From Spirosoma foliorum (GTDB lineage Bacteria > Bacteroidota > Bacteroidia > Cytophagales > Spirosomataceae), in contig NZ_CP059732.1 of the NCBI RefSeq assembly GCF_014117325.1, positions 7,815,001-7,879,000 of the forward strand: a DNA stretch of 64,000 nucleotides, read 5' to 3'. The stretch's first letter is position 1, and each line of letters starts with the position of its first letter. The notes below the pieces were generated by a model. It saw nothing but the letters and a program-made list of their open reading frames with translations, ran no database searches and was not told where the DNA came from. Of the stretch, positions 21,658 to 50,423 are shown piece after piece. The position numbers and the translations under genes were made by a program.

Positions 21658-21743
21658 GATTGCAAGCTGATAGTTGTCGGCTTGCAAGCTCTTATGGGTT
21701 AGGTTCAAAAACGTTGGTCCATTTTTGAGGCCAACGTTTTTTT
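21658..21743 (+). ncRNA. Candidate structured RNA, GCTCTTATGGGTTAG family, copy 1
   Basis: An 11-bp hairpin (21660-21687, TTGCAAGCTGA with TCGGCTTGCAA) is followed by the conserved block GCTCTTATGGGTTAG (21688-21702) and then a terminator, AAAAACGTTGG/CCAACGTTTTT with a T run ending at 21743. Copy 2 at 50342-50423 has the same order with compensatory base changes in the hairpin. A 29-residue membrane ORF lies 316 bp downstream. Confidence 0.6.
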
Positions 21744-23467: not shown

Positions 23468-23539
23468 GGCTTTATGGTGTAATGGATAGCATCACAGTCT
23501 TCGGAACTGTTGGTTGGGGTTCGAGTCCCTATAAAGCCA
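23468..23539 (+). tRNA. tRNA-Arg (anticodon TCG)
   Basis: The acceptor arms GGCTTTA and TAAAGCC are exact complements. The D arm holds AATGGATA, the anticodon arm is ACAGT-CTTCGGA-ACTGT giving TCG, and the T loop is TTCGAGT. CCA is not encoded. A -7 box lies just upstream and a terminator follows at 23551. Confidence 0.93.
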
Positions 23540-23550
23540 CAAACTTTGAT

Positions 23551-24084: not shown

Positions 24085-24603
24085 GCTATTGCTGATTTAA
24101 GCTAGAGTTTAGATGAAAAGAGGGTTTTGGGAGTTAAGTAAAAAACCTTGTCTATAGTTAGTTTAAAGACGTTCCTATTGTTCCTATTCTTCTGTACTGA
24201 TTTTTGTCAATTAATTGATCCTTCTCAGATGAATCTGTTGTAGTAAGTAAACAAAGTAACCTAGTCGAGCGATGACCTGTGTTGCTGGATAGAGCATAAG
24301 GAAAACAGTTTCATGGGTTGACTACTATACGTAAATCAGGATGTTTTTGATTCCTAAGAATTCATACTATACGCTTAACTCTCTAAAAAATGATGTTTTC
24401 GTGTGTATTTGATAACTAAAAGCCTACCAAATCAAGATGCCATGAACTTCAGATTGGCCTACAAATTCCAATTCTGTTAAAATTAACATGTGTTAGTTAG
24501 TTACGCCGTTTAGTCGATGTGTTACCAAATATAAACATTTGTTCCTTATTTTGTTTTGAGAATTGTTAAGTGTAAACTTAATTATTCGTTGGAAATAATT
24601 TGT

Positions 24604-24635
24604 AAACGCTGGCTCGTTTGAGTCCAGCGTTTTTT
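24604..24635 (+). terminator. Terminator-like hairpin
   Basis: AAACGCTGG and CCAGCGTTT pair with an 11-nt loop followed by Ts. What transcript it ends is unclear. Confidence 0.65.
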
Positions 24636-24801
24636 ACAATGACTAGCGGGCTTATTTATACAGCTATAGATGAATCGGTAAGGCTTAATAGAGAGAAGAT
24701 ATAGCTATAGGCTGCCTCAAACAACAGTTTCTGATAGTCTATTCGTGTTCTTTGTAAGTACTACTATTATTCCTCACTCATGTGTAGAATGGATTAGGTA
24801 C

Positions 24802-24835
24802 AAAAAACGCCAGCCTTACTGAGGCTGGCGTTTTT
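24802..24835 (+). terminator. Terminator-like hairpin of the CGCCAG type
   Basis: AAAACGCCAGCC/GGCTGGCGTTTT. Preceded by TGTGTAGAATGGATTAGG, a possible degenerate version of the GGTGTGGAT block. Confidence 0.7.
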
Positions 24836-24845
24836 AATTTTATAT

Positions 24846-24963
24846 TAATGAGCTTGACTTCGTTATGCCGTAAGTTGCAAGAAGTTATTAGGTGCGCTTT
24901 GGCGCACGAATGGTGTGGATAGAATATATATAACGCCAGTCTCATTGGGACTGGCGTTTTTTT
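24846..24963 (+). ncRNA. Candidate structured RNA, GGTGTGG family, unit 1 (full length)
   Basis: Order: hairpin TAATGAG/TTCGTTA with a 6-nt loop, a GTAAGTTGCA block, hairpin GTGCGC/GCGCAC (24892-24907), GAAT, GGTGTGGATAG (24912), then terminator AACGCCAGTC/GACTGGCGTT with a T run. The unit at 25186 has the same order and spacing with base changes that keep pairing. Confidence 0.62.
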
Positions 24964-25112
24964 ACGGCTATTGCCGAAGATTCAAATCGTCATAAACCAC
25001 TATACTATCTCGAAGCTTGACCAGGCATGATAAGACTATAGCGTATTGTTATAAAAAGTATATGGCTTGCCAATAGCCCATTCGGCAAAGCTCTGGGTAC
25101 TATTTATTGTCT

Positions 25113-25176
25113 CCTACTTAGGTAGGGATGGTGTGGATATTGCCCAAACGCCAGTTCTCGTAGGACTGGCGTTTTT
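25113..25176 (+). ncRNA. Candidate structured RNA, GGTGTGG family, unit 2 (short form)
   Basis: Hairpin CCTAC/GTAGG (25113-25126) with a 4-nt loop, GAT, GGTGTGGAT (25130), then terminator AAACGCCAGT/ACTGGCGTTT. The first hairpin and GTAAGTTGCA block are not visible. The hairpin stem differs in sequence from the other units but keeps its position. Confidence 0.55.
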
Positions 25177-25185
25177 AATTCTCTG

Positions 25186-25299
25186 TTAATGAACTTAAAT
25201 TCATTAACCTGTAAGTTGCATGGCTTATTAAGTGCGTTACATGCACGAAGGTGTGGATAGAGAAGTTTAACGTCAGTTTCGCTGGGACTGGCGTTTTTT
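25186..25299 (+). ncRNA. Candidate structured RNA, GGTGTGG family, unit 3 (full length)
   Basis: Hairpin TTAATGAA/TTCATTAA with a 6-nt loop, GTAAGTTGCA, hairpin GTGCG/TGCAC (25232-25246), GAA, GGTGTGGATAG (25250), then terminator AACGTCAGT/ACTGGCGTT, where one C-G pair of unit 1 is replaced by T-G. Compensating changes in both hairpins relative to unit 1 support a conserved RNA. Confidence 0.62.
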
Positions 25300-25505
25300 C
25301 ATTTACGAAGGTATCGTGTTGTCAATCAGAGAAGTATACGATTCGCTTGCGGCTATAGTCCGTTATAGTAGACGCATAAAAAACAGTCGCCATCAAAATA
25401 GATGACGACTGTAGGACCTATTAAAGATTATCACTTAGTACCAATACTCCTTATTGGCATAGATCGTTGCTGTCAGCAGGTAAAAGCCTAAGCGGGTATT
25501 CATTC

Positions 25506-26357
25506 TCAGGCGTTAAGCTTCTTGACATTTTGGAAGCTAATCGCAATGGCTTCCAGCGGGGGAACTTTGCAAATGTCCTGCTCAACGTAATAGTGTTTAA
25601 TACCTGCAATCTTGCGTGCATCCAGAATTCGCTGAAAATCAATGGAGCCAGTACCTACTGGCGCGAAGGAACGCTCGGCCGTTTTTTCCATATCCTTCAA
25701 ATGGACAATTGGGAAACGGCCTGGGTTTTGCTTGAATAGCGCTACCGGATCTTGACCCGCTTTTGTTGACCAGTATATATCTAATTCCAGTTTAACCAAT
25801 TTAGGATCAGTTCCTTTTAGGAGTAGATCATAGGGAACCTGACCGTCTAAGGGTTGAAATTCAAAGTCGTGATTGTGGTAAATAAATTGAAGCCCGGCTT
25901 TCTGGCATACTTCTGCCGATCGGTTAAATAACTCGTTCAGCTTTTTATAGTCATCGATAGTTTTACGTTCATTGGGGGCTAAATAAGCACATCCTATGAG
26001 CGATTGGCCAGCTTCAGCGGCCTGGTCTACGGTTTTCTGCCAGTCGGTTTTCATCGTGCTCGTCATAGTGAGGAGACTTGGCGCACTCAGCCCCATTCCA
26101 CTCAAAAAGGCTTTGAATTCCTTTGGAGATTTGCCATAGTAGCCACCTATTTCTATTTCGGTATAGCCGATAGCCGCTACCTTTTTCAGTGTACCTTCTA
26201 CGTCTTTTTCCATCTCATTTCGGACCGTATAGAGTTGCAGACCTACGTTTTTTAGTGGAGCCGCCGTAGCGTCCAGTTTACTCAGAATGGGCAGAGAAAG
26301 AGCAAGGGCACTTGTTTTCAAGAACTCGCTTCGGGAAATTGTACGGGGAAAGGCCAT
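25506..26357 (-). CDS. Sugar phosphate isomerase/epimerase (TIM barrel), exported
   Basis: 283 residues. The N-terminus (TISRSEFLKTSALALSLPIL) is an export signal. The barrel carries GYTEIEIGGYYGKSP, FIYHNHDFEF (His and Asp/Glu at metal-binding positions), KLELDIYWSTKAG and IVHLKDMEK. This is the standard pattern of the xylose-isomerase-like TIM barrel enzymes of Bacteroidota. Substrate unknown. Monocistronic. It ends next to the RNA-like array. Confidence 0.88.
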   Translation of the reverse strand: MAFPRTISRSEFLKTSALALSLPILSKLDATAAPLKNVGLQLYTVRNEMEKDVEGTLKKVAAIGYTEIEIGGYYGKSPKEFKAFLSGMGLSAPSLLTMTSTMKTDWQKTVDQAAEAGQSLIGCAYLAPNERKTIDDYKKLNELFNRSAEVCQKAGLQFIYHNHDFEFQPLDGQVPYDLLLKGTDPKLVKLELDIYWSTKAGQDPVALFKQNPGRFPIVHLKDMEKTAERSFAPVGTGSIDFQRILDARKIAGIKHYYVEQDICKVPPLEAIAISFQNVKKLNA

Positions 26358-46748: not shown

Positions 46749-46940
46749 GGTTTACTGAGGACAAAAATAAGAAGTATGACGTATTTGATCGACTTACCGG
46801 TAAAAAGGAAGCACCCAGCGGACTTTTTTCGGTTTTGCCGCGACGTTGAGTGCTCATTTTCAAAATAAATATGGCTAAAGCCATCTTGCAAATTCAGCAA
46901 CTAATAGTCCACTAATCCCTATTTTGGGTATTACGTTAGT

Positions 46941-47002
46941 TCGCGCTAGGCGCGACGGTGTGGTTTCACGAAACGCTCAGGCTGATGGCTTGGGCGTTTT
47001 TT
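46941..47002 (+). ncRNA. Candidate structured RNA, GGTGTGG family, unit 4
   Basis: Hairpin TCGCGC/GCGCGA (46941-46955), one base, GGTGTGG (46957-46963), then terminator AACGCTCAGG.../..TTGGGCGTT and a T run. Same order as the units at 24.8-25.3 kb, with different hairpin bases. Confidence 0.5.
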
Positions 47003-47096
47003 ATGACATCCCCTCATCCCTACGTCTGCTAGCCGTAGCTAGCATTCACAAAGGTTGATTGCTAAACACCAGCCTCTTTTGGGTCTGGCGTTTAGC

Positions 47097-50341: not shown

Positions 50342-50423
50342 AAAAAAACGTTGGCACTAGTAGCACCAACGTTTATATCTAACCCATAAGAGCTCGCAGG
50401 CTACTAGATGTAGACCTGCAATC
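50342..50423 (-). ncRNA. Candidate structured RNA, GCTCTTATGGGTTAG family, copy 2
   Basis: Reading the minus strand: hairpin TTGCAGG-CTAC/GTAG-CCTGCGA (50394-50421), then GCTCTTATGGGTTAG (50379-50393), then terminator AAACGTTGG/CCAACGTTT and a T run. The hairpin differs from copy 1 at several paired positions with pairing kept. Confidence 0.6.

What the first reader, a model, noticed from the sequence alone, without database searches (positions are those of the whole stretch)
24846..25299. Tandem array of structured RNA-like elements with a GGTGTGG core
Units at 24846, 25113 and 25186, plus a distant one at 46941, share hairpin, GGTGTGG(AT) and a terminator. Two full units also share an upstream hairpin, a GTAAGTTGCA block and almost equal spacing. 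Paired bases change together (A-T to G-T, C-G to T-G), which points to conserved RNA structure. Tandem units each with its own terminator suggest separate small RNAs.
Basis: seen in the sequence. Interest (0 to 1): 0.72.

Follow-up and report, generated by a model that had tools for sequence, protein, structure and literature searches.

The report
Multi-copy small RNA family in Spirosoma
The repeated units look like genes of an uncatalogued family of short regulatory RNAs that bacteria of the Spirosoma group carry, often in many copies, and that probably bind the messages of secreted and lipid-anchored envelope proteins.

Summary
Four units in the window (A, B, C in tandem, D 22 kb away) share the layout variable hairpin, GGTGTGGATAGA (D diverged), terminator. 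A model of motif plus terminator alone matches 36 of 36 genus genomes (1-23 matches each) and 39 of 101 sampled family genomes; of 194 order genomes 10 matched, one outside the family, lacking the motif. The window's genome holds 12 motif-bearing copies. The hairpin, left out of the model, recurs (62 of 97 members against 6 of 33 other matches) and covaries in a core copy. No Rfam family reached its cut-off. The core seed lies 143-308 nt before a CopR/CusR-like regulator in 18 of 23 named records. In the own genome 9 of 12 copies face convergent genes or each other, so they look like free small RNAs. Of 25 complementary sites outside ORFs, 11 have a start codon within 100 nt on the mRNA strand, none on the other; 12 of 20 next genes look secreted against 83 of 368 background ORFs. 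Best reading: sibling trans-acting small RNAs, like LhrC or FopS. Transcription and pairing are not shown.

The parts
24871..24879 (+). promoter -7-like box TAAGTTGCA of unit A
   Evidence: Same block in C (25212-25220) and in L039, 11-12 nt before the hairpin. Across 103 upstream regions TANNTTGC occurs in 13 against 4.4 in shuffles and TANNTTTG in 34 against 7.5, many of the latter in related core copies. Transcription start inferred.
24880..24963 (+). unit A: predicted small RNA of about 84 nt
   Evidence: R1 match 62.7 bits, but A is one of the 30 sequences R1 was built from; fold z -3.0
24892..24907 (+). hairpin A, GTGCGC-TTTG-GCGCAC
   Evidence: on its own not exceptional (10 of 60 shuffles reach it)
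24912..24923 (+). seed motif A, GGTGTGGATAGA
24932..24963 (+). intrinsic terminator A
25100..25178 (+). unit B: predicted small RNA; hairpin 25113-25126, seed 25130-25139 (GGTGTGGATA), terminator 25146-25178
   Evidence: R1 55.8 bits (in the training set); fold z -4.5; 5' end unknown
25185..25208 (.). DNA palindrome GTTAATGAACTTAAATTCATTAAC before unit C, possible operator
   Evidence: inverted repeat I10; imperfect counterpart at A, about 24844-24866; role inferred
25212..25220 (+). promoter -7-like box TAAGTTGCA of unit C
   Evidence: as for A
25221..25300 (+). unit C: predicted small RNA of about 80 nt; hairpin 25232-25246, seed 25250-25261, terminator 25269-25300
   Evidence: R1 56.1 bits (in the training set); fold z -2.5
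46920..46927 (+). possible promoter -7 box TATTTTGG of unit D
   Evidence: sequence only
46936..47003 (+). unit D: diverged member; hairpin 46941-46955, motif GGTGTGG 46957-46963 followed by TTTCAC instead of ATAGA, terminator about 46970-47003
   Evidence: R1 44.4 bits (in the training set); fold z -3.7

Best explanation
The units are genes of sibling trans-acting small RNAs of about 80-120 nt. Each starts shortly before a stem-loop of variable sequence, carries a conserved stretch (AAT-GGUGUGGAUAGA, about 22 nt in the core copy) between stem-loop and terminator, and ends in an intrinsic terminator. The stretch pairs with complementary sites near the start of mRNAs, many of them for secreted proteins and lipoproteins, and most likely blocks translation. 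One core copy, in a tandem pair in several other genera, sits before a CopR/CusR-like response regulator and a kinase gene that may control it; Spirosoma has multiplied the gene, in some species to 10-23 matches per genome, with different upstream regions. Shown by sequence: layout, copy number, covariation, synteny, complementary sites and their orientation. Inferred: transcription, accessibility of the seed, pairing in the cell, repression, control by the two-component system.
For: Matches in 36 of 36 genus genomes and 39 of 101 family genomes. Hairpin outside the model: 62 of 97 members pass (at most 3 of 60 shuffles as good) against 6 of 33 R1 matches without the motif (Fisher p 4e-6, members treated as independent though related). 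Core hairpin, 39 distinct sequences: helix next to the seed 99.3% paired, 5 of 7 pairs with two-sided changes; covariation score 0.410 against 0.244 shuffled and at most 0.130 when slid. Own-genome copies mostly stand alone. TCTATCCACACC: 77 hits in 7 genomes, 6 for the reversed pattern; after removing members and adding 7 own-genome sites, 25 sites lie outside ORFs, with a start codon within 100 nt on the mRNA strand 11 times and on the other strand 0 times (p 0.001). Next genes secreted-like 12 of 20 against 83 of 368 (p 5e-4). Start-proximal pattern: 10 hits, 2 of them members, reversed control 0.
Against: No transcript data. 35 of 97 members do not pass the hairpin test singly, window units A-D among them. 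Minimum-energy folds of the window units pair part of the motif. In one search two of five measures are weak: pairs with two-sided change 11 against 8.4 (16 of 500 shuffles), further pair types 30 against 27 (38 of 500). The secretion test is a home-made rule on mechanical ORFs; two of its 12 positives (L271, L275) look like the same gene in two species and L231 may be a membrane anchor. The sites come from 8 genomes (9 in the secretion test) and 5 may be decayed copies. Beyond 100 nt the orientation bias is weak (19 against 8 at 400 nt, p 0.05). The mirror-image start-proximal search also gave 5 hits, 1 of them a member. Few targets recur at orthologous genes.
Confidence: 0.7

Rival explanations
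1. The core copy is a cis-acting leader or attenuator of the response regulator operon: hairpin, conserved stretch and terminator decide whether transcription runs on into the regulator gene. Dispersed copies are by-products.
For: The core seed ends 143-308 nt upstream of the regulator start, same strand, in 18 of 23 named records.
Against: In the own genome 7 of 12 elements (1015919, 4384531, 4293326, window A-D) face convergent genes, though at 4384531 an 84-aa mechanical ORF on the same strand starts at the terminator; 1441436 and 1441978 face each other. In L118 another gene lies between core and regulator, 1278 nt in L198; in L110 the next gene is on the other strand, with no regulator in the 1.5 kb held. 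In 3 records with at least 3.9 kb of flank no regulator was found.
Confidence: 0.12
2. The conserved stretch binds a protein, and the multi-copy RNAs titrate it, as CsrB/RsmY RNAs do with CsrA; there are two GGA motifs in the core stretch.
For: The conserved stretch of about 22 nt is longer than a usual seed and has GUGGAU and GCGGAA; the core copy sits beside a two-component system, as recalled for Gac-controlled RsmY/Z.
Against: No CsrA match (PF02599) in the own genome, while the control found it in 3 of 14 genomes. Complementary sites near start codons would be unexplained. Another protein is not excluded.
Confidence: 0.12
3. The motif is a DNA site: TGTGGATAG differs by one base from a DnaA box (recalled), so the copies and the other intergenic sites could bind DnaA or another DNA-binding protein.
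For: Some non-member intergenic sites carry two TGTGGATA-like words (L155, L274, L275; near match in L278).
Against: Conservation runs beyond the 9-mer and includes covarying stems and a terminator in fixed order. Sites near start codons have one orientation, 11 against 0.
Confidence: 0.04

Closest known systems
LhrC family of Listeria (LhrC1-5, Rli22, Rli33-1; PMC8079631, passages seen)
   Same: Multicopy small RNAs, four of them at one locus; stem-loop A, single-stranded stretch, terminator loop; most of them induced through a two-component system (LisRK); targets include an adhesin and a transporter's binding protein, by pairing at the ribosome binding site.
   Different: Seed UCCC against GGUGUGGAUAGA here; different phylum; no sequence link seen. 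Control by the two-component system is reported there and only inferred here.
FopS / GibS of Bacteroides thetaiotaomicron (PMC11697453, abstract and passages seen)
   Same: Bacteroidota; 14 paralogous small RNAs in one genome with a shared seed and terminator; FopS binds near start codons of SusC-type envelope protein mRNAs.
   Different: FopS consensus is a single-stranded 5' stretch plus terminator, with no hairpin before the seed. The GibS model scores 19.3 bits at unit A against a cut-off of 115. Partner protein RbpB is an RRM-1 protein; no RRM_1 match was found in this genome. The seed sequences of FopS were not seen and not compared.
OmrA/B, Qrr and Cia-dependent sRNAs (named in PMC11697453 passages; control by response regulators recalled)
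   Same: Sibling small RNAs, several per genome.
   Different: No Rfam match at gathering scores; the Qrr model gives 25.2 bits at unit A against a cut-off of 50.

Membership tests
sibling (paralogous) trans-acting sRNAs | several copies per genome with one shared seed | tested here: met
   12 motif copies in the own genome; 1-23 model matches per genus genome, some of them plain terminators
sibling (paralogous) trans-acting sRNAs | own promoter and terminator, free transcript | tested here: inconclusive
   terminators clear; promoter-like boxes upstream; no transcript data
sibling (paralogous) trans-acting sRNAs | base pairing with mRNAs in trans | tested here: inconclusive
   oriented complementary sites near start codons; no experiment
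FopS/GibS (Rfam GibS RF04182) | match to the covariance model | tested here: not met
   19.3 bits against 115
FopS/GibS | association with the RRM_1 protein RbpB | tested here: not met
   no RRM_1 match in the own genome; control found it in 2 of 14 genomes, one a Bacteroides
LhrC | UCCC seed motifs | tested here: not met
   the shared stretch is GGUGUGGAUAGA
CsrB/RsmY-type sequestering RNA | CsrA/RsmA in the genome | tested here: not met
   no match in the own genome
cis-acting leader/attenuator | located before a same-strand gene | tested here: not met
   met for the core copy; not met for 9 of 12 own-genome copies

The most novel reading that the evidence does not exclude
A family-wide envelope regulon of Spirosomaceae run by RNA: a two-component system of the metal-response type drives a core small RNA, which in some Spirosoma species was multiplied into ten to twenty siblings with separate promoters. 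All aim one G-rich seed at start regions of secreted and lipoprotein mRNAs, without CsrA and without an RbpB-type RRM protein.
Probability: 0.33. Interest if true: 0.72.

Novelty: new member of a known kind. Interest (0 to 1): 0.58.

Why it matters
Multi-copy small RNAs in Bacteroidota are described for Bacteroides (FopS/GibS, PMC11697453). No paper on small RNAs of Spirosoma or Cytophagales was among those listed by my searches (15 of 1,291 listed, none with the word Spirosoma; none found; 8 of 1,158 listed, none with the word Cytophagales). This adds a structured family with a conserved core locus, a candidate regulator next door and a list of testable targets, in a genome where searches found no CsrA and no RRM_1 protein, so small-RNA control of the envelope in this group becomes directly testable.

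Tried and rejected
Rfam at gathering score on the window: only two tRNAs. Rfam on six relatives: nothing. Rfam with permissive scores: only matches far below their cut-offs. CsrA titration: no CsrA match. RbpB-type partner: no RRM_1 match. RNAalifold's own fold of the core alignment paired GGGAAGGTTG with the terminator tract, mostly by pairs that hardly vary; I counted the local hairpin instead, which I drew from these same sequences. A model including the 5' hairpin was not built, because MAFFT misaligned the arms; so the hairpin could serve as an outside test. The order-level hit outside the family, G208/L139, is a terminator without the motif. The core copy in a record named Flavobacterium sp. 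SUN052 (L202) is not taken as spread to Flavobacterium: its response regulator is 94.7% identical to that of Rudanella paleaurantiibacter (L194). The four window units alone were too few for covariation.

Rows dropped or placed by hand. R1 was built from 30 of the hits, picked by eye. Of the 77 hits, 16 were not fetched because one search lists them as R1 matches. In the site count 34 fetched loci were set aside as family members: 30 by R1 and 4 by eye (L229, L247, L255, L261). Kept as sites although they may be decayed members: L226 (25.8 bits), L256 (28.1), L252, L237 and L231; L267, set aside, scored 25.6. One search used 35 sites, including 3 from G091. L274 and L175 were left as not secreted, although the real next gene may be. 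Of the 8 non-member hits, three (L280, L282, L288) are sites already in the set, and the pattern's ATGAAR itself favours signal peptides; secretion there was judged by eye.

Full report
OBSERVATION. The window lies at 7815001-7879000 of an 8.85 Mb genome. Two genomes of its genus have contigs of the same length as named records, Spirosoma telluris (8658028) and Spirosoma fluviale (2635547), so the genus is taken as Spirosoma. Units A, B and C lie in about 420 nt between a tRNA-Arg gene (23468-23540) and a convergent gene (25506-26357, minus strand); D lies between two minus-strand ORFs. Each has a hairpin, GGTGTGG and a GC-rich terminator, and folds better than its shuffles. GGTGTGGWT is in excess in the window (5 against 0.65), GGTGTGG alone is not.

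FAMILY. The pattern GGTGTGGN{18,48}GCGTTTTT in 36 genus genomes returned many hits of one kind, with ATAGA following the motif although the pattern did not ask for it. From 30 of them, picked by eye and including the four window units, I built model R1 of motif and terminator only. In it the letters GGTGTGG and GCGTTTTT are fixed by construction. At E 1e-4 or better R1 matched 36 of 36 genus genomes, 1-23 matches each, 39 of 101 family genomes in 16 of 36 genera, and 10 of 194 order genomes, of which one lies outside the family and lacks the motif. The family and order searches used stricter filters that lose weak matches. Counts include some plain terminators: in the own genome 11 of 13 matches bear the motif; with one weaker match (4316430) the own genome has 12 copies. 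No Rfam model reached its cut-off on the window or on six relatives (permissive scans 37, 38).

STRUCTURE. The hairpin was not part of R1, so its presence is a test. In 62 of 97 unique members a stem abutting the motif is matched by at most 3 of 60 shuffles, against 6 of 33 R1 matches without the motif, which include other terminators, antisense matches to terminators and second-family members (Fisher p 4e-6, relatedness ignored). 35 members do not pass singly, window units A-D among them; A, B and C have short stems. In 39 distinct core copies the stem next to the seed is paired in 99.3% of cells and 5 of its 7 pairs show two-sided changes; the upper stem is 74.2% paired. Over all 15 pairs there are 72 cells with two-sided changes against 24.6 in shuffles and at most 25 when slid; two other measures are only slightly above shuffles (16 and 38 of 500 reach them). 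The structure was drawn from these sequences, which favours it. Against the picture of an open seed: minimum-energy folds of the window units pair part of the motif. Having added this I set the main confidence at 0.70 instead of 0.72, the protein-binding rival at 0.12 instead of 0.10 and the bold reading at 0.33 instead of 0.35.

CORE COPY AND SYNTENY. A match with the core copy's score of 44.2 bits is listed in 27 of 36 genus genomes (capped list). Its sequence is GATCCTTTACAAAGGGAAGGTTGAACATCAAGA or near it, hairpin, TCTTGAAATGGTGTGGATAGAAGCGGAAAGCC, terminator. In Rudanella-type and other genera a second copy (GGTGTGGATATAGTCGGAAAGC) stands about 210-265 nt upstream (about 760 nt in L122 and L140), so tandem units occur outside Spirosoma too. 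A response regulator (Response_reg plus Trans_reg_C; best NCBIfam model TIGR01387, heavy-metal regulators, 267 bits against a cut-off of 279) follows, then a gene that ends up with the kinase motif HELRTP (the kinase fragment that I scanned matched no Pfam family). Of 23 named records the regulator starts 143-308 nt after the core seed in 18 and 1278 nt after in one; it was not found in 3 with at least 3.9 kb of flank, and one was not testable (253 nt). In the own genome a CusA/CzcA-type efflux gene lies upstream (TIGR00914, 401 bits for a C-terminal piece; cut-off 701 for the whole protein).

FREE RNAS, NOT LEADERS. Of the 12 own-genome copies, 7 (1015919, 4384531, 4293326 and window A-D) face convergent genes; at 4384531 an 84-aa mechanical ORF on the same strand begins at the terminator. 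1441436 and 1441978 face each other. 4316430 and 3904022 have a same-strand ORF 400-480 nt on. Only the core has a convincing same-strand gene close by (ORFs of 80 aa or more, mechanical). Promoter-like boxes occur upstream: TANNTTTG in 34 of 103 upstream regions against 7.5 in shuffles, many in related core copies. Four paralogs share TGCCAC-N14-20-GCGTA (0.0 in shuffles), so copies may answer to different signals.

TARGETS. Non-member hits of TATCCACACC in two genomes fell in two groups: hits in intergenic stretches extended the complementarity to the seed by TC, hits inside ORFs mostly did not (grouping by eye). TCTATCCACACC gave 77 hits in 7 genus genomes against 6 for the reversed pattern. 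16 hits were known members and not fetched; 34 fetched loci were set aside as members. 25 sites remained, and 7 from the own genome were added: 32 sites, 25 of them outside ORFs. A start codon lies within 100 nt on the mRNA strand in 11 (in two of them, L243 and L166, the site lies just inside the ORF) and on the other strand in 0; within 400 nt the counts are 19 and 8 (p 0.001 and 0.05). In a list of 35 sites from 9 genomes, 20 have a next same-strand gene within 400 nt; 12 of the 20 look secreted by a home-made rule, against 83 of 368 background ORFs, which come from the same fetched loci, and 1 of 8 on the opposite strand (p 5e-4). Examples: 28 nt before MKKIVFSSLLVAASWQVKGQ, 43 nt before the lipoprotein-like MPTTPLLILLLAAVLCAC, 60 nt before MKISFASGLLVRFLLAASFSSLVAC. 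A genus-wide search for the complement followed by ATGAAR gave 10 hits, 2 of them members, and 0 reversed; of the 8 others 5 have secreted-like ORFs by eye, 1 does not and 2 have no long ORF; 3 of the 8 were known sites. The mirror search gave 5 hits, 1 of them a member. Perfect complementarity to the core at 12 examples is 13-17 nt, largely by selection.

MECHANISM. The simplest account is sibling trans-acting small RNAs with one shared seed that occlude start regions of envelope protein mRNAs. Nothing here shows transcription or repression. The CsrA route is unlikely and an RbpB-type partner was not found; Hfq was not tested.

KNOWN RELATIVES. LhrC of Listeria works alike in layout and control (PMC8079631, passages), FopS in phylum and target type (PMC11697453, abstract and passages). 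No sequence relation was found: the GibS model scores far below its cut-off; FopS and LhrC sequences themselves were not compared. The paper searches listed no work on small RNAs of Spirosoma or Cytophagales (listings only, capped).

Noticed in passing
window 21697-21743 (+) and 50342-50384 (-); also L021, L039, L057, L070, L076: A second small-RNA-like family of the same layout with TTATGGGTTAG before the terminator: 7 of 9 distinct hits in the fetched loci have a terminator right after. In L050 and L057 a member faces a member of the first family.
   Followed up: partly
window 24590-24636 and 24797-24837: Two more terminators of the same type just upstream of unit A, without the motif; they could end further RNAs.
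   Followed up: no
L202 (NZ_JAPQNS010000004.1): Record named Flavobacterium sp. SUN052 carries the tandem core pair and a response regulator 94.7% identical to that of Rudanella paleaurantiibacter; the name may be wrong.
   Followed up: partly
L155, L274, L275, L278: Intergenic sites with a second TGTGGATA-like word 15-25 nt on, either double pairing sites or DnaA-like boxes; L271, L274 and L275 lie at what looks like the same gene in three species.
   Followed up: partly
L255, L261: Family members with an extra GC-rich hairpin between seed and terminator; in L255 the upstream stem extends into a copy of the seed's complement.
   Followed up: no
L045, L046, L033/L217, L056 upstream of the hairpin (L049 similar): TGCCAC-N14-20-GCGTA promoter-like pair, perhaps for an ECF sigma factor, in four paralogs.
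   Followed up: partly
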